A stretch of DNA of 64,000 nucleotides from an uncultured SAR86 cluster bacterium. GTDB lineage: Bacteria > Pseudomonadota > Gammaproteobacteria > Magnimaribacterales > D2472. A model generated the notes under the pieces. That model made no database searches. It was not told the DNA's origin and worked only from the letters and a program-made list of their open reading frames with translations. This document shows, in pieces, positions 50,045 to 60,191 of the stretch. A program made the position numbers and the translations under genes. Position 1 is the stretch's first letter, and every line of letters begins with the position of its first letter. The stretch lies in the NCBI GenBank assembly GCA_902608115.1, contig CACLMT010000002.1, positions 1 to 64,000 of the forward strand, read 5' to 3'.

Positions 50045-51166
50045 TTATTGAACCGTCCCAAAAGCGAGCTCTGTTACTTCAAATAATGCTGTATTTAAAT
50101 CTGACATTATCTCACCACTTTCTGTTTGAGTTATTTCTAATTTTCTATTGATGCGGTCTAGTTCGTTTTGAGGAATGCTATCTAGATCGTCTCGATATAA
50201 TAAGTATAAATCAGCTATATCTAGGTGAAGCTGTATGACATCAGTTGTATTATTTATATAACTTTTTGCAAGATATTCTATTGCAGAGATTTTTGGAGAG
50301 AAATGACTTATTGAATCATCAAGAGCAACAAGCTGATTCAAGGTTTCTATAAAAGATTTTAGATTTATAAAAATCTCACGTTTTATTTGATTATATTCTT
50401 CATATTTAACTGTTACTCCTTGGTGAATCTTTGAAACAATATCTGGATTTAATTTTTCAGTACTTAAATGAAAAGCTTGAAGTCTTGTTGTGTCTGCAAG
50501 AAATTTTGCTCCATAAATTTCAATATCAATAATAATTTTAGATAAGTTAAAATCTGGCAAATATAGTTTATTTAATTCAAGGTTTTCTGCAATCAATAAT
50601 ACAAAGTCAGCACTCAGGAAGTATGATTTAGCTGAGAGTTGATCATATTGATAGTAATCTTGCTCGATAATTATCTTTATTTGATTTTCAGATATTTCTG
50701 CAAGTTGTTTCATATGGTCATCAAGCTTCTGAATTAGCTGATAGCTTGCTTTATATAGCGGCATATAAACTTTAATGCCTGAAGAAGATTTTAATTTTAT
50801 GTTATTAAATTCTTTTTGAAATTTATTTTGTTCTCTATAAATTCTATCTTGTAGTATCTCAAGACTTTCAAACATCTGTTGTTCAGATATCTTGTCGCTA
50901 TAAAAATCATTTGTAAGAAGATAATTAATTTCATACTGAAGAGTATTTTGGTAAGCAACAGCATCTACTGCTTTTTGAAAAATTAATACAAAAGTCTGCA
51001 TTTCTTTTCTTGATATTGGATTTTCCATTATCTCTCCAATTTCTTCTAAGGTTAGCTCTTTAATATCAGCTTTAATTAGCTCTGAAAAAGGAATTAATAA
51101 AATTATAAACAGTGAAAAAGCAAGAGTTTTTTTAAAGATTTTGTTTTTTGATAGCATATATTGCAT
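50045..51166 (-). CDS. Secreted helical hypothetical protein, divergent from the MORN-caspase gene
   Basis: 373 aa; hydrophobic N-terminus; 30-bp divergent intergenic gap. Confidence 0.6.
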   Translation of the reverse strand: MQYMLSKNKIFKKTLAFSLFIILLIPFSELIKADIKELTLEEIGEIMENPISRKEMQTFVLIFQKAVDAVAYQNTLQYEINYLLTNDFYSDKISEQQMFESLEILQDRIYREQNKFQKEFNNIKLKSSSGIKVYMPLYKASYQLIQKLDDHMKQLAEISENQIKIIIEQDYYQYDQLSAKSYFLSADFVLLIAENLELNKLYLPDFNLSKIIIDIEIYGAKFLADTTRLQAFHLSTEKLNPDIVSKIHQGVTVKYEEYNQIKREIFINLKSFIETLNQLVALDDSISHFSPKISAIEYLAKSYINNTTDVIQLHLDIADLYLLYRDDLDSIPQNELDRINRKLEITQTESGEIMSDLNTALFEVTELAFGTVQ

Positions 51167-51195
51167 AATTAATACTACTCTATTAATTGAAATAA

Positions 51196-53196
51196 ATGAA
51201 AAAGTATTCCTTTTTTATAGTTTTAAGTCTATTTTCAGTATGGGTATTCTCTAATGAGAATTATCAGTGTGATGCTGTTGATGATGACTTAACTGGGCTT
51301 GTTTGTATTTCATCTGATAAGAAATATTCAACGGTTTCAAAATTAACTCAACTAGGCTCAACCTATAATGCCTCTATAACATTTCCTGATGATGGTGATA
51401 CCTGGGAAGTTGAGGTCAATCAATCCAACATTAAAATTTCCATGAATGATGATGAATCATTTTTTGGCAAAATTAAAAATAAAAGAATTTTTGGCACCTT
51501 GGTTAGAAAAAACTTTTCAAGGACTGATGCTGAGCTTGTAGGATCTGGAATGACGGGTGAGGCAGATATTTTCTATGATAATGGAGATACCTTTAAAGGA
51601 AGGATAAAAGATAATCTTCGAGAAGGATTGGGCGTATATACTTTTGCTTTGCTTGATGGACAAGAAAATCCAGAATTTACAGAGTGTATTTATAAAGAAG
51701 ATGAATGCCAAACAGGAAAATATTACTTCGATACTGGAACAACATATCAAGGCGACTTTGAGGATGGGTTTTTCCATGGCGAGGGTGTTTACCGATATAA
51801 TCATGGCGCGATCTATACAGGAACGTTTGCTTATGATTCCAGAAGAGGATATGGGGAATATTTTTATGAAGAGGGGTCAAAACTATCGCACTACAAGGGA
51901 TATTACATAGATAATAAACAACATGGCCCTGGTGAAACTATGTGGTCTGGAGATGGAATACCTGGTTACGGTGATCGTCTTATTAAATATCACGTTGGTC
52001 AATACAAAGATGGAGAAATGACTGGTCAAGGTGTTTTTTTAGATTTTGAAAAAAGAATTATTTATCAAGGAAATCTCCTGGAAGGTTCCAGGCATGGTGC
52101 AGGCACAACTTTTTTGCAAGATGAGGAGGGTAGGCTTTTTTCACATAGTGGTAACTATAAAGATGATCTTCTTAACGGTTTTGGGAAAATACATTATTCA
52201 GATGGAGCAACATTTGAAGGCAATTATTCAGAAGGACAACGAAGTGGTCTTGGAGTTTTGATTGATCCAATTATAAGCACAGTTAGTACAGGGATTTTTT
52301 CGAATGGCGAACTAAATGGCATGGGAAAGGAAGAGGTATTTAATGCAGATGGAAGTTCTGCATTTGTTTTAGAAATTAACTTTCTTAATGGAGAGAAGCA
52401 TGGGCGTGGACTAGTTACTTTCAATGATGGTTCAACTTTTTATGCTAGATATATTGATGGTGAGTATCAAGGGGAGCTGGAAGAATTACAGGATCCCCCA
52501 GTACCCATAAATGATAGATTAGCTTTAGTAATAGGTAATGATAATTATTTAAGCAGTCCCTTAAATAATGCTGTTTCGGATTCTATTGGAATATCGGATC
52601 AACTTAAAAAGTCAGGATTTGAAGTGATTTATGTTTCCAATGCTACTTATGAATTATTTCAAAAGGCAATTAGCGAATTTAGAAATAGATTAGAATTAAT
52701 GGGTCCAACAACAACTGCTCTTTTTTATTACGCTGGACATGCTGCTCAAGTTGATGGAATAAATTATCTTAACCCTATTGATTCTGAGATATCTAGTAAA
52801 TTTGAACTATATACAAAAGCTATAAATATGAATGATATTTTCTCCGTCGTTTCAGAACATGTTGATAGGGTAAAAATTGTTATTTTAGACGCTTGTCGAA
52901 ATAACCCATATCCTAGTTTTATCAGGTCAGCATCAACTGGATTAGCACAAATGACTGCTCCAGACGGAACAATTATTGGCTACTCCACCAGTCCAGGCAA
53001 AGTATCCCTAGATGGAGAAATAAACGGTTATGGAATTTATACTGGAAATTTAATAAGTGCTATGAATGTTCCTGGGAGAACTATTGAAGAAGTTTTTAAG
53101 GAAACTACAAGAGCAGTTAAAACTTTAACAAATAATAAACAAGTTCCTTACACATCCACTACTTTATCAGGTAATTTTTATTTTATAGAAGATTAA
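51196..53196 (+). CDS. Secreted MORN-repeat protein with C-terminal caspase-like (C14) protease domain
   Basis: Signal peptide; MORN motifs (YQGDFEDGFFHGEGVYRY, YTGTFAYDSRRGYGEY, FEGNYSEGQRSGLGV); RLALVIGNDNY; FYYAGHA (His) and VILDACRNNP (Cys). Confidence 0.92.
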   Translation: MKKYSFFIVLSLFSVWVFSNENYQCDAVDDDLTGLVCISSDKKYSTVSKLTQLGSTYNASITFPDDGDTWEVEVNQSNIKISMNDDESFFGKIKNKRIFGTLVRKNFSRTDAELVGSGMTGEADIFYDNGDTFKGRIKDNLREGLGVYTFALLDGQENPEFTECIYKEDECQTGKYYFDTGTTYQGDFEDGFFHGEGVYRYNHGAIYTGTFAYDSRRGYGEYFYEEGSKLSHYKGYYIDNKQHGPGETMWSGDGIPGYGDRLIKYHVGQYKDGEMTGQGVFLDFEKRIIYQGNLLEGSRHGAGTTFLQDEEGRLFSHSGNYKDDLLNGFGKIHYSDGATFEGNYSEGQRSGLGVLIDPIISTVSTGIFSNGELNGMGKEEVFNADGSSAFVLEINFLNGEKHGRGLVTFNDGSTFYARYIDGEYQGELEELQDPPVPINDRLALVIGNDNYLSSPLNNAVSDSIGISDQLKKSGFEVIYVSNATYELFQKAISEFRNRLELMGPTTTALFYYAGHAAQVDGINYLNPIDSEISSKFELYTKAINMNDIFSVVSEHVDRVKIVILDACRNNPYPSFIRSASTGLAQMTAPDGTIIGYSTSPGKVSLDGEINGYGIYTGNLISAMNVPGRTIEEVFKETTRAVKTLTNNKQVPYTSTTLSGNFYFIED

Positions 53197-53204
53197 TTTT
53201 CTTT

Positions 53205-53229
53205 GTAACAAAACTCTCTCTTGCTCGTA
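53205..53229 (+). promoter_or_regulatory. ECF-type promoter: GTAAC-N16-CGTA
   Basis: gtaacaaaactctctcttgctcgta upstream of the STYG-repeat gene. Confidence 0.75.
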
Positions 53230-53276
53230 GTATTTATATAAGGCAATTACGCTTTGTATGTAAAAAGGAAAATTCT

Positions 53277-53597
53277 ATGAAAAAACTACTTTTAACAACC
53301 ATGATCGCTTTTGGATCAATGGGGGCTCAAGCAAGCTATAACTACTTAAACTCATACACCTATGGAAATAATACAAGTACCTACGGTCAAGTTGGTGGTA
53401 ACAGTGTCAACTTATCAACCTCTAGATATGGAAATAATATATCTACCTATGGAAGTATTGGTAGCAGCTCTGTAAATATTTATAGCAACAGCTATGGCAA
53501 CACTACATCCACATATGGCAATGTAGGATCTTCTAGAATTAATGGCCAAAGTTCTACTTACGGGAATTCAACAAATTCTTGGTGGACTATAGACTAA
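53277..53597 (+). CDS. Small secreted S/T/Y/G/N-repeat protein
   Basis: Signal peptide MKKLLLTTMIAFGSMGAQA, then about 3.5 copies of SxYGNxTSTYGxVGSSSVNxxS. Confidence 0.75.
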   Translation: MKKLLLTTMIAFGSMGAQASYNYLNSYTYGNNTSTYGQVGGNSVNLSTSRYGNNISTYGSIGSSSVNIYSNSYGNTTSTYGNVGSSRINGQSSTYGNSTNSWWTID

Positions 53598-53676
53598 TTA
53601 ATTTTTTATACATGCCCTTGATTACTCGAGGGTATGTATATTTCAAATAGATAGATAAATATGCAAGAATACCTTA

Positions 53677-54150
53677 ATGACAAATTTCGAAAGTATGCTT
53701 TTTTCAGACGGTCTGAGGGTTAAGCTTATGAATATTGCCATGTCTAGAACTTTCAATCGATTCGATGCTGAGGACCTTGTGCAAACCACGTACCTCAAAG
53801 CAATTGAGAAACAAGATCAGTTTTCTGGTGAAAAGATAGATCCCTGGATTGTTACTATCTTGAAAAATACATTTATTGATTCAACACGCAAGAAAAAACC
53901 GGATCTTCCGGGTGATGATCTACCAGAACTGACAGAAGATGGCGATCAGGAAAACACCTTACTAGAGAGAGACCGTGATATGTGCTTTGAAAAACTTGAT
54001 GAGGTAGAAAGGGATGTCATTGCCATGAAACAAACAATGAGTTATAAGGAAATTGCTGATTTTCTTCAAATAAAAGCAAGTTCAGTGCGAGTAAAGCTAT
54101 TGCGAGCAAAAGAAAAATTTATGATTTGTATGGATTTTGATAATGACTGA
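53677..54150 (+). CDS. ECF-type RNA polymerase sigma factor
   Basis: RFDAEDLVQTTYLKAI region 2; MSYKEIADFLQIKASSVRVKLLRAKEKF region 4. Confidence 0.92.
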   Translation: MTNFESMLFSDGLRVKLMNIAMSRTFNRFDAEDLVQTTYLKAIEKQDQFSGEKIDPWIVTILKNTFIDSTRKKKPDLPGDDLPELTEDGDQENTLLERDRDMCFEKLDEVERDVIAMKQTMSYKEIADFLQIKASSVRVKLLRAKEKFMICMDFDND

Positions 54151-54802
54151 TCAAGATAAAATTTTAATCATGTCCTATTTGGATAATGAGCTTGATGCGA
54201 AAGAAATCTCTGAGATTGAATTATTAATTGCTAGCGATTCAGATGCTCAAGATTATCTCAATCAACTTAAAATGACCAATAATGAGGTGGATGCGTTTTT
54301 TAACTCTGATGATATGAAGCTACTAGATGCTTCTATATCTGAATTTGTTGAAAGCTTTAAACCGAAACAAGCAGCATCTTTTGTAAATTTTAGCAATGTT
54401 CTTGCAGGCTTCTTTACTCCCAAACAAGCTCTAAGCTACTCATTTACAGCTGCACTTTTTTTAGTAGTAGGTTTATTTTTTCAAGATCTTACCTATAAAG
54501 AAATATTATTTGATTTGAATGGTGATATTTATGAAAAACAAGTTTTTATTACAAGGGGCGTAAGTGTTAATGTTGGCCTCAAAGATGAAATACATGCAAT
54601 GATCTATGAAATGGTTCAAAACAATTCTCCTGAAGGTAATTTAACCTATGGTTCGAGTGTTTATGCTATATTTCTTGAAGATAAAACCATTGAAACAGAT
54701 TCTTTAAATTGTTATGCAGGCCAGTATTTTATTGCGGGAGAAAACCAAGAATTCATTTTCTGCGAATCCCAGCAGGACACTTCTCTTATTTTTATTAATT
54801 AG
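54143..54802 (+). CDS. Putative membrane anti-sigma factor
   Basis: Starts ATGACTGA overlapping the sigma stop; LIMSYLDNELDAKEISEIELLIASD; one TM (ALSYSFTAALFLVVGLFF). Confidence 0.75.
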   Translation: MTDQDKILIMSYLDNELDAKEISEIELLIASDSDAQDYLNQLKMTNNEVDAFFNSDDMKLLDASISEFVESFKPKQAASFVNFSNVLAGFFTPKQALSYSFTAALFLVVGLFFQDLTYKEILFDLNGDIYEKQVFITRGVSVNVGLKDEIHAMIYEMVQNNSPEGNLTYGSSVYAIFLEDKTIETDSLNCYAGQYFIAGENQEFIFCESQQDTSLIFIN

Positions 54803-54919
54803 TTTTTCGTATTCACACCTCCTTACTTTTCAAGAGGCTTTACCTATAGCTGATAATCGTTACATTAATCATTTTGTTGTTTAAGGAGATACATTGCTTA
54901 TAGCATTTTATAAACTTCT

Positions 54920-54944
54920 GTAACATTCATACTTAACAACCGTT
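54920..54944 (+). promoter_or_regulatory. Weaker ECF-type promoter candidate: GTAAC-N16-CGTT
   Basis: gtaacattcatacttaacaaccgtt, 62 bp upstream of the stronger 54982 copy. Confidence 0.35.
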
Positions 54945-54981
54945 CAACTCATGTAAACAGAGGATTGCAACGAAAGTTTAA

Positions 54982-55006
54982 GTAACAAACTCACTCTTTA
55001 ATCGTA
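54982..55006 (+). promoter_or_regulatory. ECF-type promoter: GTAAC-N16-CGTA
   Basis: gtaacaaactcactctttaatcgta, 27 bp before ATG 55033. Confidence 0.8.
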
Positions 55007-55032
55007 GTAAGCCTATACATGGAGTATTAAAT

Positions 55033-56601
55033 ATGAAATTTTTAACAAAACAATCTTCTTCACACATGCTATATGTATTTGCATGGTCTTTAGAAATAAT
55101 CTTATGCCTATGTGGTATTTTAATTGCATTTACTTTGTCATACCTTGGTATGGTCAGCTTAGAAGGTGATCAACAATTTTCCCAAGCCCAGTATTTAACT
55201 ATGGGGATTGCTTTTTTACCGCTTTTTGCTATTGCCTTAACTGAGCTATTAAAGATTCCAGCAGTAACAGGATTTGTCTATGCAAAGTCTTTAAAAACAA
55301 AGTTAATAGCAGGATTTTTTCTCTTAGCGGTGTGTATTCTCACTTTTGAAACTATGTTTTCTGGTCAGGAGCAAGCTTTTGCCTTAAGAACAGAGCAAAT
55401 CAAAGTAGAGAAGGAGGATGAAAATCGAATAGTTGAAAAAATGCAACTTATTGATAGTCAAGTTGAGTCAATCTCAGGATTATCGCTTGCACAAATTAGA
55501 AAGCACTCAAGCAATGGACTAAAGATCCAATTACAACCACTCGAAACTCAAATTACGGAACTGCGAGTTCGTGAAAATGAATTAAAGATCTCAATGAATC
55601 CAGCAGAAATTGAAGAACAAAAAAGGCAAATTAATAATCTTGAAAAAAACAAAGATAGATTGTTTGTTCAATATCAACAAGAATTAAACAGTTTGAATTC
55701 TGCGCTTAATCAACTGAATAAAAATGAGCAAAATGAATTAAAAGACACTATCATCTTCAAAAATTCTATTAGAAAAAAATATTCAGATCAAAGAGCTGGG
55801 TTAAAAGCAGAAAAAGCAGCTCTAAAATTGGCTCTTGATACAAAAGTTAAATCAATAGATACAAAAATATCTACTGCTGATAATCTAATTGCAGATTACA
55901 GTAAACCAAACCCTAAAGTGATAGCTGATCTTAATATCGTTAGTGCACAGATATTAGCACTACAACAAGAAATCAAATTAAGAATTGATAAAGCCAATAA
56001 AGAAGTAGATGTAACCCTTGCTAATACATCTTCTAATAAACTAAGAATCAATCAATTGCAATTGTCCAAAGTAGAGTTGGGCGCAGAATTAAATTCTGTT
56101 AGAGATAGTATTGCTTCACGTTCAAATAAATCAAACATTCATAGGTTGGCTGCCTTGTATTATGGTATAGATAATCCGGCTGACCTCTCACAGGAAGATA
56201 TTTCTATTTTCGCATTGATATTCATGGCTAGCATTGCATTTGTGGTCGCTGTAGCAGGCCCCCTTATTGCTTTTATATCTCTTAGAAATTACGTTGAGGG
56301 AGATGCACCTAAGCCTAATAAAACAGCTTTGGCAATTAGAAAGGCTGCTGTAGCTTTAAGAAGAAGACTGCTTAAGCCTAAAGTTATTACCAAAATTAAT
56401 GAGGTTGAAGTTGAAAAAGAAATTATTAAAGAAATACCAGTTGAAAAGGTTGTTTATGAAAAGGTAGAGGTGCCAACACCATTTGAGGTTACTAAATTTG
56501 TCGGTGTTCCTGTACCCACTGATCCTAAAGATCTTCCTTCGCCGCCAGAAATAGACGTCGAGAAGGTCAATAACTTATTAGATCAAGGGGAAGCAGCATG
56601 A
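55033..56601 (+). CDS. Polytopic membrane protein with long coiled-coil region
   Basis: 3 N-terminal TM, ~230-aa K/E/Q-rich coiled coil, 1 TM, then EVEVEKEIIKEIPVEKVVYEKVEVPTPFEV tail. Confidence 0.7.
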   Translation: MKFLTKQSSSHMLYVFAWSLEIILCLCGILIAFTLSYLGMVSLEGDQQFSQAQYLTMGIAFLPLFAIALTELLKIPAVTGFVYAKSLKTKLIAGFFLLAVCILTFETMFSGQEQAFALRTEQIKVEKEDENRIVEKMQLIDSQVESISGLSLAQIRKHSSNGLKIQLQPLETQITELRVRENELKISMNPAEIEEQKRQINNLEKNKDRLFVQYQQELNSLNSALNQLNKNEQNELKDTIIFKNSIRKKYSDQRAGLKAEKAALKLALDTKVKSIDTKISTADNLIADYSKPNPKVIADLNIVSAQILALQQEIKLRIDKANKEVDVTLANTSSNKLRINQLQLSKVELGAELNSVRDSIASRSNKSNIHRLAALYYGIDNPADLSQEDISIFALIFMASIAFVVAVAGPLIAFISLRNYVEGDAPKPNKTALAIRKAAVALRRRLLKPKVITKINEVEVEKEIIKEIPVEKVVYEKVEVPTPFEVTKFVGVPVPTDPKDLPSPPEIDVEKVNNLLDQGEAA

Positions 56602-57500
56602 ATGCGGCAATTTATGATTCAAGTGCCGTTGATGTATACATCCTAGAGCAAATTAAAAGGGAGCAAGAAATCACCAGAACTCGATCAATAGAAAACTTTG
56701 CTAAAGAGGCTCCTTTTTTACTATTACTCTGGGGTGGTCGGCTATTAGCAATTGGTTTATTAGTCCTTTGTATTGGATATGCAATTAAATTAGCTCTCAG
56801 CTGGCATCATATTGATGAAACTATTAATTCTTACCCATCTCCTTCTGTTCATACCGGATATCAAACAGATGCAATCAGCAAAGAGGATACTGTATTTGAT
56901 GTGGAAGCAATCCTTTCAGGAACTAACGGAAATAATCAAAGTAGGGGATCAATATCAAATCCAGCGGAGATTACCAAAGACAGTCCGTTGCCAATAACAT
57001 CAGTTGAACAAGGTAACGTTCAAGATAGTAATGGGCCTGCTTCAGATGTTATTGAGTCTGGTATTGATAGTTCTTTTTCTGGGCCATCATTGGATCATGA
57101 TAATAGTCAAAGCTCATCGAATACAGAGTCACAACAATCAATTCAAAGCAATCCAGAATTGAAAACTACTCAAGAGCATGAAATGGATAATAAAAATAAT
57201 ATTGCACCACCAGAAGAAGATACTATTAGACATTATACGGTTTTTGATCGAATTCCCTTTGACGGTAAGTCTATTAAAACAGTAATAGTTGGAAGGAAGT
57301 TTAATGAACCCGGTGGGCCGCTGATAGAAAAATATTGTTATTTCAAAGTTCCAAAGTCTAAGGATATTTACGATTCAATTTATTTCATAAGAGATACTTC
57401 TAAAGGTAGGCACGAACTCCCAATTACACAGAATTTATCAAAATTTCTAAAAATAGAGTATCAAGAATTATTAGATGCCAAATCAAAATGCAAAATTTAA
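56598..57500 (+). CDS. Single-TM protein with Ser/Asn/Gln-rich linker and C-terminal domain
   Basis: ATGA overlap with previous gene; TM LLAIGLLVLCIGYAIKLAL; disordered linker. Confidence 0.65.
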   Translation: MNAAIYDSSAVDVYILEQIKREQEITRTRSIENFAKEAPFLLLLWGGRLLAIGLLVLCIGYAIKLALSWHHIDETINSYPSPSVHTGYQTDAISKEDTVFDVEAILSGTNGNNQSRGSISNPAEITKDSPLPITSVEQGNVQDSNGPASDVIESGIDSSFSGPSLDHDNSQSSSNTESQQSIQSNPELKTTQEHEMDNKNNIAPPEEDTIRHYTVFDRIPFDGKSIKTVIVGRKFNEPGGPLIEKYCYFKVPKSKDIYDSIYFIRDTSKGRHELPITQNLSKFLKIEYQELLDAKSKCKI

Positions 57501-58141
57501 AAAAATATTTTTTACTTAGCTTTGTATTTCTTCTTGCAGTTCAAGGCTTTGCTGATGGTACGCAGATTTATAATGCTAAGGTTGATGGAGTAGTTTTAAT
57601 TCTTGGAGAGGGTGGTTTAGCCTCGGGTGCAATTATTAGCAAAGAAGGTCATATTCTTACAAATTGGCATGCTGTTTATGGGAATGAAAATATGAATATT
57701 TTTATTCTAGGAGTGGGTGAGGTTGAAGATAATACCTATCAAGCTCAAGTTTTAAAACTGAGCCAATCACAAGATTTAGCACTATTAAAAATAATAAACC
57801 CACCCAGAAATCTTAATGTCCTTAGATTAAGCAAAGTTATTCCTCAAATTGGATCAGCAGTTCATGCTATTGGTCATCCTCAGGGTGAGATCTGGACATA
57901 TGGCCACGGTTATATCAGTCAACACAGAGATAACTATGAATGGAGTTACAAAGATTCTGATGAAATTTTCACTGCTGATGTATACCAGATGGATGCTCCT
58001 ATCTATGAAGGTAATTCAGGAGGACCTTTATTGAACAAATTTGGAAATATTGTCGGCATTAATTCATTTGGCTATCAGAATAAACAGGGTTTGAATTATG
58101 CAGTCAGCGTCAAAGAGATTATTAAATTTTTAGCAAATTAA
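57488..58141 (+). CDS. Secreted trypsin-like serine protease
   Basis: ILTNWHAVYG (His), DLALLKI (Asp), YEGNSGGPLLNKFGNIVGINSFG (Ser). Confidence 0.93.
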   Translation: MQNLKKYFLLSFVFLLAVQGFADGTQIYNAKVDGVVLILGEGGLASGAIISKEGHILTNWHAVYGNENMNIFILGVGEVEDNTYQAQVLKLSQSQDLALLKIINPPRNLNVLRLSKVIPQIGSAVHAIGHPQGEIWTYGHGYISQHRDNYEWSYKDSDEIFTADVYQMDAPIYEGNSGGPLLNKFGNIVGINSFGYQNKQGLNYAVSVKEIIKFLAN

Positions 58142-58151
58142 ATAATTATTT

Positions 58152-58176
58152 GTAACAAACTTATTTATCAATCGTA
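58152..58176 (+). promoter_or_regulatory. ECF-type promoter: GTAAC-N16-CGTA
   Basis: gtaacaaacttatttatcaatcgta, same spacing as the 53205 and 54982 sites. Confidence 0.78.
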
Positions 58177-58199
58177 ATAATTAGGTAGTTGGTTAGAAA

Positions 58200-58310
58200 T
58201 TAACCTCCCACTAATCGACTCAAGGGCTGGTGAAATTCCAGATAAATAGCGAGCTAGATTTATAACACTATTTCTCCTACCTGTTATAGCTCGCTGTTTC
58301 GGTGGGATAA
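58200..58310 (+). ncRNA. Structured 5' leader / candidate small RNA downstream of an ECF promoter
   Basis: Outer TCCCAC/GTGGGA (58206-11/58302-07), CTGG/CCAG hairpin (58227-41), AGCGAGCT..ATAACA/TGTTAT-AGCTCGCT long hairpin (58248-95). Confidence 0.5.
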
Positions 58311-58333
58311 AAAAATTTAAACAAAGAAATTAC

Positions 58334-59296
58334 ATGTCAAAAATACCATTAAACGAAACCAGCACAGAATTAAAAAATTACCTGCTTGCAAAGTCATACT
58401 TGGAATATATTCAATGGCAGCTAGCTGACTTAGACTTATTTACGTCTTTTGTTCCAATTGTAGAACGAGCTGCAAAATATGGTCAATTGCAAGAACGATT
58501 GATTAATTTAGACGAATCAATTTCTAACGCCTATCAATTTAGAGATTTTACAAGCGAGATATCTAAAGATGCCTTTGATTTGTTGATTGCTCACACAATA
58601 AATTTTTACAATTACATCAACAATCAAGTAAAAAATTGTTTGAATGCCAGTAAAAAGTCTGATGATATTAATGCTGCTGACATACACTTTTTTACAACTT
58701 GTATAAAAAAATGGGATCTTTATAAAACTCTTTTACCTAGCGATCATTATGAGATTGGCTTTTTAGATGCAGCTATTTTTTCAACTCGTGCTTTTTTAGA
58801 GGGATTCAAGGACGAGTCTTGTTACAAAATTGGCGAAGAGTTATCCATGAAATCAATGGATGAATTAGAAAAGATATATATTTCTATCACTCAAAACACT
58901 TATCTAGTTGATGAATATGCTTCACTGAAAATATTGAACAAGGATACCAGCGATGATCAAGAAGATTTTAATAAGTTTCTTGGTCTGCATTTAGTCTCTA
59001 TAGCGTGGAGTTATCGCCAGAGTCATTTATCTGCAAAAATATTTAAAAGTTTAATTGTTGATGCAGAACAATTATCTGAGCAAGAGGTTGATGTTTTGAT
59101 AGGGTTTTGTGAATCGATAAGCACCGATTACATGGAGGCTTCAGCTGCTAAAACACAAATATTTCTCATCATTATTAAAAAGATATTTGATGTAGCGGGG
59201 TGTGAACTTCGAGAAGTTGATCTATTTTATCCTCCTAATGAGCCTGAAGAGATTTTTAATTCCAAAGAGTTTAAATATCTCAGAGATCTTCTATGA
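58334..59296 (+). CDS. Hypothetical helical protein, candidate ECF regulon member
   Basis: 320 aa, no signal peptide, downstream of the ECF promoter and structured leader. Confidence 0.6.
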   Translation: MSKIPLNETSTELKNYLLAKSYLEYIQWQLADLDLFTSFVPIVERAAKYGQLQERLINLDESISNAYQFRDFTSEISKDAFDLLIAHTINFYNYINNQVKNCLNASKKSDDINAADIHFFTTCIKKWDLYKTLLPSDHYEIGFLDAAIFSTRAFLEGFKDESCYKIGEELSMKSMDELEKIYISITQNTYLVDEYASLKILNKDTSDDQEDFNKFLGLHLVSIAWSYRQSHLSAKIFKSLIVDAEQLSEQEVDVLIGFCESISTDYMEASAAKTQIFLIIIKKIFDVAGCELREVDLFYPPNEPEEIFNSKEFKYLRDLL

Positions 59297-59819: not shown

Positions 59820-60065
59820 CTAAAAAAAAATAGGTCCAGATACCTCTATTTTAGAAGCGTTAAGCAAATTAAAAAATCGTTCCCATAAGTCTTGTTGATG
59901 TTTTTGTTTCAAGTCATTTGGAAAACCTACTGATCCGCAACTACCAACTCTTACCCAGGCACTGGAAAATCTAAGGTATGGGTCTTGCTTAAATGTGAAA
60001 TAGTATGCGCATGAACCAGTATTCAGGGTTACATGATAAATAGTTTTTTTGTCGTTTTTATTCAT
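59820..60065 (-). CDS. Small hypothetical protein
   Basis: 81 aa ORF with its own RBS (ggagaaaa). Confidence 0.5.
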   Translation of the reverse strand: MNKNDKKTIYHVTLNTGSCAYYFTFKQDPYLRFSSAWVRVGSCGSVGFPNDLKQKHQQDLWERFFNLLNASKIEVSGPIFF

Positions 60066-60191
60066 TTTTTCTCCATTAGTTGTTGAATAACCACATCATT
60101 TTTCCACCTTGCCGGAGTCGGCAGGTTGGAGAGGAATTTAATCCTGCTCTTGATGCTTGTGTATTATATCAATTTTTTGAAAATAATCATT

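What the first reader, a model, noticed from the sequence alone, without database searches (positions are those of the whole stretch)
50045..59296. Candidate undescribed envelope stress/conflict system: MORN-caspase, ECF sigma/anti-sigma, STYG-repeat protein and coiled-coil/trypsin operon
Seen: contiguous genes encode a secreted MORN-caspase, an STYG-repeat secreted protein, an ECF sigma with a membrane anti-sigma, a coiled-coil membrane operon ending in a trypsin-like protease, and another promoter-linked protein. Shared promoter-like motifs tie the units together. Established: caspase-like (C14) and trypsin-like proteases recur with regulatory proteins in bacterial conflict and signalling loci, and ECF/anti-sigma pairs can be activated by proteolysis. 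Inference: an envelope-sensing proteolytic circuit in which a protease releases the sigma factor, which then drives the STYG protein and the trypsin operon.
Basis: partly seen in the sequence, partly recalled or inferred. Interest (0 to 1): 0.9.

Follow-up and report, generated by a model that had tools for sequence, protein, structure and literature searches.

The report
Caspase-linked single-locus sigma factor circuit
A tiny marine bacterium carries a self-contained switch in which a sigma factor and its membrane inhibitor appear to control only their own gene cluster, always together with an exported caspase-type protease, which makes it a CRISPR-free counterpart in outline of the protease-to-transcription circuit known from one CRISPR type.

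Summary
The genes are there, and most of the linkage is real. An ECF sigma/anti-sigma pair, a 4-TM coiled-coil protein, ORF7, a trypsin and the STYG protein form a conserved module. Of 203 genomes in the order, exactly three, in three genera, carry this sigma (257-285 bits; next best 84) and strong coiled-coil matches. The same three are the only genomes with a caspase-clan protease: two have an exported TPR-CHAT protein, and the window has MORN-caspase (C14) instead. The promoter GTAACA-N14-TCGTWRW occurs 3, 3 and 4 times in these genomes, always inside the locus; 21 genomes without the locus hold 3 sites together. This points to a self-directed, single-locus ECF regulon. Most likely, an exported caspase-fold protease acts on the periplasmic half of the anti-sigma factor, and sigma then drives STYG, the coiled-coil/ORF7/trypsin operon and ORF9. 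The cleavage step is inferred, and the trypsin is an alternative protease. The logic resembles Craspase (Csx29-Csx30-sigma), but without CRISPR and on the periplasmic side; it is not a member of that family. ORF1 is not supported as part of it. A role in conflict or defence is plausible but not shown.

The parts
51196..53196 (+). Exported MORN-repeat caspase (Peptidase_C14; dyad H515/C567); stands in for the exported TPR-CHAT protease of the related loci
53205..53232 (+). ECF promoter 1 (GTAACAAA-N12-TCGTAGTA), 72 bp before the STYG start codon; same position in G030
53277..53597 (+). STYG: small exported Ser/Thr/Tyr/Gly/Asn-rich 22-residue-repeat protein; 71% identical homologue in G030
53607..53640 (+). 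Strong hairpin between STYG and sigma (-21.4 kcal/mol, z -6.7), terminator/attenuator-like; equivalent hairpin in G030
53677..54150 (+). ECF sigma factor (regions 2 and 4)
54137..54802 (+). Membrane anti-sigma factor: helical cytoplasmic N-terminus, one TM (about 97-115), periplasmic alpha+beta domain with two conserved Cys (192, 209); the ORF call starts at a TTG inside sigma and M3 is the better start
54982..55009 (+). ECF promoter 2, 51 bp before the coiled-coil operon; same position in G030, GTAACA-N14-TCGTTAA in G063
55033..56601 (+). Membrane coiled-coil protein (3 N-terminal TMs, about 270-residue coil, 1 TM, conserved EVPTPxEVTKFVxVPVPT tail)
56598..57500 (+). ORF7: single-TM protein with a conserved C-terminal beta-rich domain (well-predicted, about residues 210-300)
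57488..58141 (+). Exported trypsin-like protease, HtrA/DegS-type catalytic domain without PDZ; 48% identical in G030 and G063
58152..58179 (+). ECF promoter 3, 182 bp before ORF9
58334..59296 (+). ORF9: 320-aa protein of unknown family, predicted regulon member in this genome only

Best explanation
The locus is a compact accessory signalling module of SAR86-type marine gammaproteobacteria. An ECF sigma factor is held by a one-TM anti-sigma factor whose sensor half lies in the periplasm. An exported caspase-fold protease, MORN-C14 here and TPR-CHAT in relatives, is switched on by an unknown envelope cue and cuts the periplasmic half of the anti-sigma (inferred); general site-2 proteases would finish its degradation (inferred). 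Freed sigma transcribes only GTAAC-N16-CGT promoters inside its own locus (strongly supported by sequence). In the window these are STYG (with read-through past a hairpin into sigma/anti-sigma, giving feedback, inferred), the coiled-coil/ORF7/trypsin operon, and ORF9. The output would be an envelope-localised complex of a membrane coiled-coil protein, ORF7 and a trypsin, plus a secreted repeat protein (inferred).
For: Coiled-coil, CHAT, C14 and sigma searches over 203 genomes of the order single out the same three genomes; the chance that the protease set equals the coiled-coil set is about 7e-7 if genomes are treated as independent. Gene order is conserved: G030 = STYG, sigma, anti-sigma, TPR-CHAT, coiled-coil, ORF7, trypsin; G063 = the same genes without STYG, with two CHATs. 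In G030 the CHAT ORF overlaps the end of the anti-sigma ORF by 13 nt. Catalytic His/Cys are kept in all four proteases. The promoter pattern has 3, 3 and 4 sites, all inside the loci, against 3 sites in 21 genomes without the locus. In other gammaproteobacteria, 6 of 13 CHAT ORFs of 1000 aa or more, but only 1 of 29 shorter ones, have an ECF sigma within 4 kb, several with a membrane anti-sigma. Foldseek hits for the anti-sigma include cytoplasmic MucA bound to AlgU. Precedent: a TPR-CHAT protease cuts Csx30, an inhibitor of an ECF sigma (PMC10028731).
Against: No cleavage, expression or binding data exist. The trypsin is also an exported protease in the same locus and could be the site-1 protease. 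The MORN-caspase gene carries no copy of the motif and lies outside the core operon. The anti-sigma assignment rests on position, topology, sub-threshold zf-HC2 matches and weak structural hits (E 0.7-0.9). Only three instances of the full module are known. Sigma, anti-sigma and coiled-coil models were built from those three genomes, although the first coiled-coil search used the window protein alone.
Confidence: 0.55

Rival explanations
1. The trypsin (HtrA/DegS-type domain) is the anti-sigma protease, as in the sigmaE-RseA-DegS pathway; the caspase/CHAT protein is an effector or maturation protease under the same regulatory roof.
For: The trypsin is exported, conserved at 48% identity with intact triad in all three loci, and matches HtrA/DegS profiles; it is in the sigma-driven operon, so it could give positive feedback.
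Against: The match covers only the catalytic domain, with no PDZ and no membrane anchor (217 aa). Outside this order, ECF plus CHAT pairs occur without the coiled-coil/ORF7/trypsin operon, so there the caspase-fold protease is the sigma's partner.
Confidence: 0.25
2. The sigma/anti-sigma pair controls assembly of a surface structure: STYG repeats form a beta-rich secreted polymer, and the coiled-coil/ORF7/proteases export or trim it. No proteolytic sensing of the anti-sigma is involved.
For: STYG is a secreted 22-residue-repeat protein with its own sigma promoter and a terminator-like hairpin right after it, suggesting high expression; the operon products are envelope proteins.
Against: STYG is missing from the G063 locus although the rest of the module is present, so it is unlikely to be the common purpose.
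Confidence: 0.15
3. The MORN-caspase is an unrelated neighbour acquired by chance; only sigma/anti-sigma/coiled-coil/ORF7/trypsin form a system.
For: It has no sigma promoter, C14 is found in no other genome of the order, and the caspase domain resembles those of marine Rhodobacteraceae plasmids at about 40%.
Against: It is the only C14 in the order and sits next to the only such locus that lacks CHAT, while both other loci have CHAT and no other genome has either.
Confidence: 0.1

Closest known systems
Type III-E CRISPR Craspase/CASP circuit (Cas7-11, TPR-CHAT Csx29, Csx30, CASP-sigma/RpoE, Csx31)
   Same: Caspase-clan protease plus ECF sigma plus an inhibitor of that sigma encoded together; several sigma sites within the own locus (PMC10028731)
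   Different: No CRISPR-like repeats in the loci and no Cas protein among the matches; proteases carry export signals; the inhibitor is a membrane anti-sigma with no sequence match to any solved structure; the CHAT proteins hit separase weakly, not Csx29
SigmaE-RseA-DegS-RseP and AlgU-MucA envelope stress pathways (regulated intramembrane proteolysis)
   Same: ECF sigma, one-TM anti-sigma with cytoplasmic helices and periplasmic domain, exported trypsin-like protease; weak structural hits to MucA
   Different: Caspase-fold protease linked to the pair; regulon confined to one locus; trypsin lacks PDZ; periplasmic domain unrelated to RseA by the searches made
Known caspase-family gene with sigma-factor neighbourhoods (metacaspase operons of Myxococcus and others, PMC3501461; ECF54 with CHAT, PMC8999054; EACC2-caspase with ECF, PMC8195603)
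   Same: Caspase-fold protease next to a sigma-70/ECF gene
   Different: ECF54 is described as lacking an anti-sigma; the EACC2 arrangement includes ECF plus a DUF1822 TPR protein; none is described with the coiled-coil/ORF7/trypsin operon or with C14 taking the place of CHAT
MORN-metacaspase architecture in an aquatic metacaspase survey (PMC4933709)
   Same: MORN repeats N-terminal to a caspase domain
   Different: No sigma or operon context found in the passage read

Membership tests
Type III-E CRISPR Craspase | Cas7-11 (gRAMP) and CRISPR array | tested here: not met
   No CRISPR-like direct repeats in the three loci; no Cas family among Pfam/NCBIfam/PADLOC hits of the genes scanned
Type III-E CRISPR Craspase | TPR-CHAT protease | tested here: inconclusive
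   CHAT present in the two related loci but C14 in the window; the CHAT profile finds separase weakly and not Csx29 among solved structures
Type III-E CRISPR Craspase | Csx30-like inhibitor of the sigma factor | tested here: not met
   Anti-sigma profile's best PDB match is an unrelated chaperonin at E 1.9; it has a TM segment and periplasmic domain. Limit: I did not confirm that a Csx30 chain is in that PDB copy
ECF sigma / membrane anti-sigma pair | Sigma regions 2 and 4 | tested here: met
   PF04542 E 8e-12, PF08281 E 1.3e-8; SigW/SigE structures
ECF sigma / membrane anti-sigma pair | Downstream anti-sigma with cytoplasmic helical domain, one TM, outer domain | tested here: inconclusive
   Topology and position fit; zf-HC2 sub-threshold in relatives (E 0.02-0.04); MucA hits with E 0.7-0.9, prob 0.77-0.93; model pLDDT 57
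ECF sigma / membrane anti-sigma pair | Own promoter motif in target genes | tested here: met
DegS-type site-1 protease | Trypsin domain plus PDZ and membrane anchor | tested here: not met
   217-aa protein matches only the catalytic part of DegS/DegP models
Peptidase C14 (caspase/paracaspase) | Domain above cut-off with His/Cys dyad | tested here: met
   108 bits against cut-off 21.4; H515/C567; MALT1 best solved caspase relative
EACC1-associated caspase systems | NF047832 above cut-off | tested here: not met
   34 bits against cut-off 140
Known anti-phage defence system | A PADLOC system's specific protein models matched | tested here: not met
   Only generic protease hits

The most novel reading that the evidence does not exclude
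A CRISPR-free, periplasm-facing caspase-to-ECF-sigma immunity or conflict switch: an exported caspase/CHAT protease senses attack at the cell envelope, cuts the anti-sigma and induces an envelope effector complex (coiled-coil/ORF7/trypsin). The protease is exchangeable (CHAT or C14) around a fixed regulatory and effector core, and the circuit would be related in logic to the sigma/protease arm of type III-E CRISPR systems.
Probability: 0.25. Interest if true: 0.85.

Novelty: new variant of a known kind. Interest (0 to 1): 0.6.

Why it matters
Caspase-clan proteases and ECF sigma factors have been noted as neighbours in bacteria, and Craspase is the one system in the papers read here where such a protease is shown to relieve inhibition of a sigma factor. 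A streamlined marine genome that keeps a sigma factor devoted to its own caspase-linked locus gives a compact, testable case outside CRISPR. The swap of CHAT for C14 around the same sigma, anti-sigma and effector genes is natural evidence that the caspase fold is the functional input. It could help explain what exported bacterial caspases and CHAT proteins are for, which is largely unknown.

Tried and rejected
Phage or plasmid origin: no coiled-coil relatives in phage, plasmid or IMG/VR collections. Wide spread of the effector operon: none outside the order in 369 class genomes or in genome contigs with the coiled-coil patterns; the sigma-pattern scan of genome contigs found only one locus with the module, G030's own contig. 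CHAT remnant in the window gap 54802-55033: an open frame with a signal-like stretch overlaps the anti-sigma end as CHAT does in G030, but similarity to CHAT is not above shuffles (p 0.08-0.87 for that frame), so no claim is made. ORF1 as part of the system: no relatives in the loci scanned and no motif. Membership in Craspase, EACC1 or a PADLOC system: rejected. An early wrong spacer in the pattern search (14-18 instead of 12) was corrected. Fold searches gave no significant hit for ORF7.
Full report
WHAT IS THERE. The window lies in a 1.25-Mb, 78%-complete genome in 37 contigs. The order is, to my knowledge, SAR86: the same-family genome G030 matches contig ARRL01000002.1 of single-cell genome SCGC AAA168-P09 (contig length 279,251 in both). 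I know that organism as SAR86 from memory; the taxonomy and paper look-ups did not confirm it. All nine ORFs of the finding are real ORFs at the stated coordinates. [quoted passage not shown] the others have no family above cut-off.

PROMOTERS. GTAACAAA-N12-TCGTARTA occurs at 53205, 54982 and 58152, and nowhere else in the genome at up to two mismatches, while the reversed pattern gives 13 hits. In G030 the same sequence stands before the STYG gene and before the coiled-coil gene, 73 and 49 bp from the start codons, against 72 and 51 bp in the window. In G063 the related form GTAACA-N14-TCGTTAA precedes the coiled-coil operon and the sigma gene. A common pattern (GTAACA-N14-TCGTWRW), written after seeing eight of these sites, finds 3, 3 and 4 sites in the three genomes, all inside the locus. 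Two of them were not known before: one before a secreted 201-aa protein in G030 and a tandem copy before the G063 coiled-coil operon. In 21 genomes without the locus it finds 3 sites together. Because the pattern was partly derived from these sites, their number is biased; the absence of sites elsewhere in the three genomes is not. This is the signature of an ECF sigma that controls only its own locus.

CONSERVATION. The coiled-coil protein, searched first with the window sequence alone and then with a profile over 203 genomes, has strong matches only in G000, G030 and G063, plus one weak match in G001 without sigma or protease. CHAT occurs only in G030 and G063, C14 only in G000. The sigma profile gives 285, 284 and 257 bits in the three and at most 84 bits elsewhere. 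The genomes belong to three genera and two families. G030 reads STYG, sigma, anti-sigma, TPR-CHAT (1106 aa), coiled-coil (frameshifted in this assembly), ORF7, trypsin, second trypsin with a peptidoglycan-binding domain; G063 reads sigma, anti-sigma, CHAT, coiled-coil, ORF7, trypsin, plus a second CHAT. A hairpin lies between STYG and sigma in both window and G030, consistent with strong STYG expression and limited read-through into sigma.

THE PROTEASE. All four caspase-clan proteins have apparent signal peptides and keep the His/Cys dyad. In the window the CHAT is absent and the MORN-caspase stands upstream. The caspase domain is nearest to MALT1 among solved caspase structures and about 40% identical to caspase-family proteins of marine Rhodobacteraceae plasmids. 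In the wider class, 56 of 369 sampled genomes have CHAT. Among the loci I inspected, 6 of 13 long CHAT ORFs but 1 of 29 short ones have an ECF sigma within 4 kb, several followed by a membrane anti-sigma, none with the coiled-coil/ORF7/trypsin operon. So long exported CHAT plus ECF is a recurrent pair, and the effector operon is the local addition.

MECHANISM. Shown by comparative sequence: module integrity, promoter specificity, protease co-occurrence. Inferred: anti-sigma binding, cleavage, identity of the protease, and output function. The anti-sigma has cytoplasmic helices, one TM and a periplasmic alpha+beta domain with two conserved cysteines; Foldseek lists cytoplasmic MucA with probability 0.77-0.93 but E 0.7-0.9. 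The most likely sequence is: envelope cue, caspase/CHAT cleavage of the periplasmic domain, sigma release, transcription of the locus. The trypsin may act downstream or compete for the site-1 role.

COMPARISON. Craspase shows the same logic biochemically: Csx29 cuts Csx30, which inhibits an ECF sigma with three strong motif matches in its own locus (PMC10028731). The present locus lacks CRISPR repeats and Cas proteins, its proteases are exported, and its anti-sigma is a membrane protein, so it works like Craspase at most; it is not a member. Other caspase-sigma neighbourhoods are on record: Myxococcus metacaspase operons (PMC3501461), ECF54 with CHAT (PMC8999054), EACC2 with ECF (PMC8195603). 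I judge it a new variant of a known kind. Full-text search covered open-licence papers only, and the main ECF classification paper was not held.

CONTEXT. The patchy distribution, the integrase-like (sub-threshold) and AAA_25 genes flanking the G030 copy, and the tRNA-Ala and DUF3427/NOV_C protein near the G063 copy suggest an accessory island. That is compatible with defence but does not show it.

Noticed in passing
window 60066-60161 (-): SAM-I/IV riboswitch (RF01725, 79 bits) directly upstream of an 81-aa ORF of unknown family at 59820-60065.
   Followed up: no
window 58180-58325: The leader between promoter 3 and ORF9 folds better than shuffles (z -2.9, 3 of 200 shuffles as good); it could be a structured leader or small RNA, with no Rfam match.
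   Followed up: partly
L020:48-1097 and L020:14434-15456: Integrase-like ORF (Phage_integrase E 5e-4, below cut-off) and AAA_25 ATPase flank the G030 copy of the module, suggesting an integrated element.
   Followed up: partly
L021:8542-12541 (G001, same genus): A 24%-identical membrane coiled-coil protein with neighbouring small ORFs but no sigma or protease next to it: a possible second family context.
   Followed up: no
L019:14691-14972 and L019:5252-6550: In G063 a sigma-type promoter faces a divergent DUF4258 gene, and a DUF3427/NOV_C protein (domains often seen in restriction-type systems, from memory) lies next to the module.
   Followed up: no
window 54700-54880 (+, overlapping the anti-sigma end): Short open frame with a signal-peptide-like stretch at the place where G030 starts its CHAT gene; possible remnant, not statistically supported.
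   Followed up: yes
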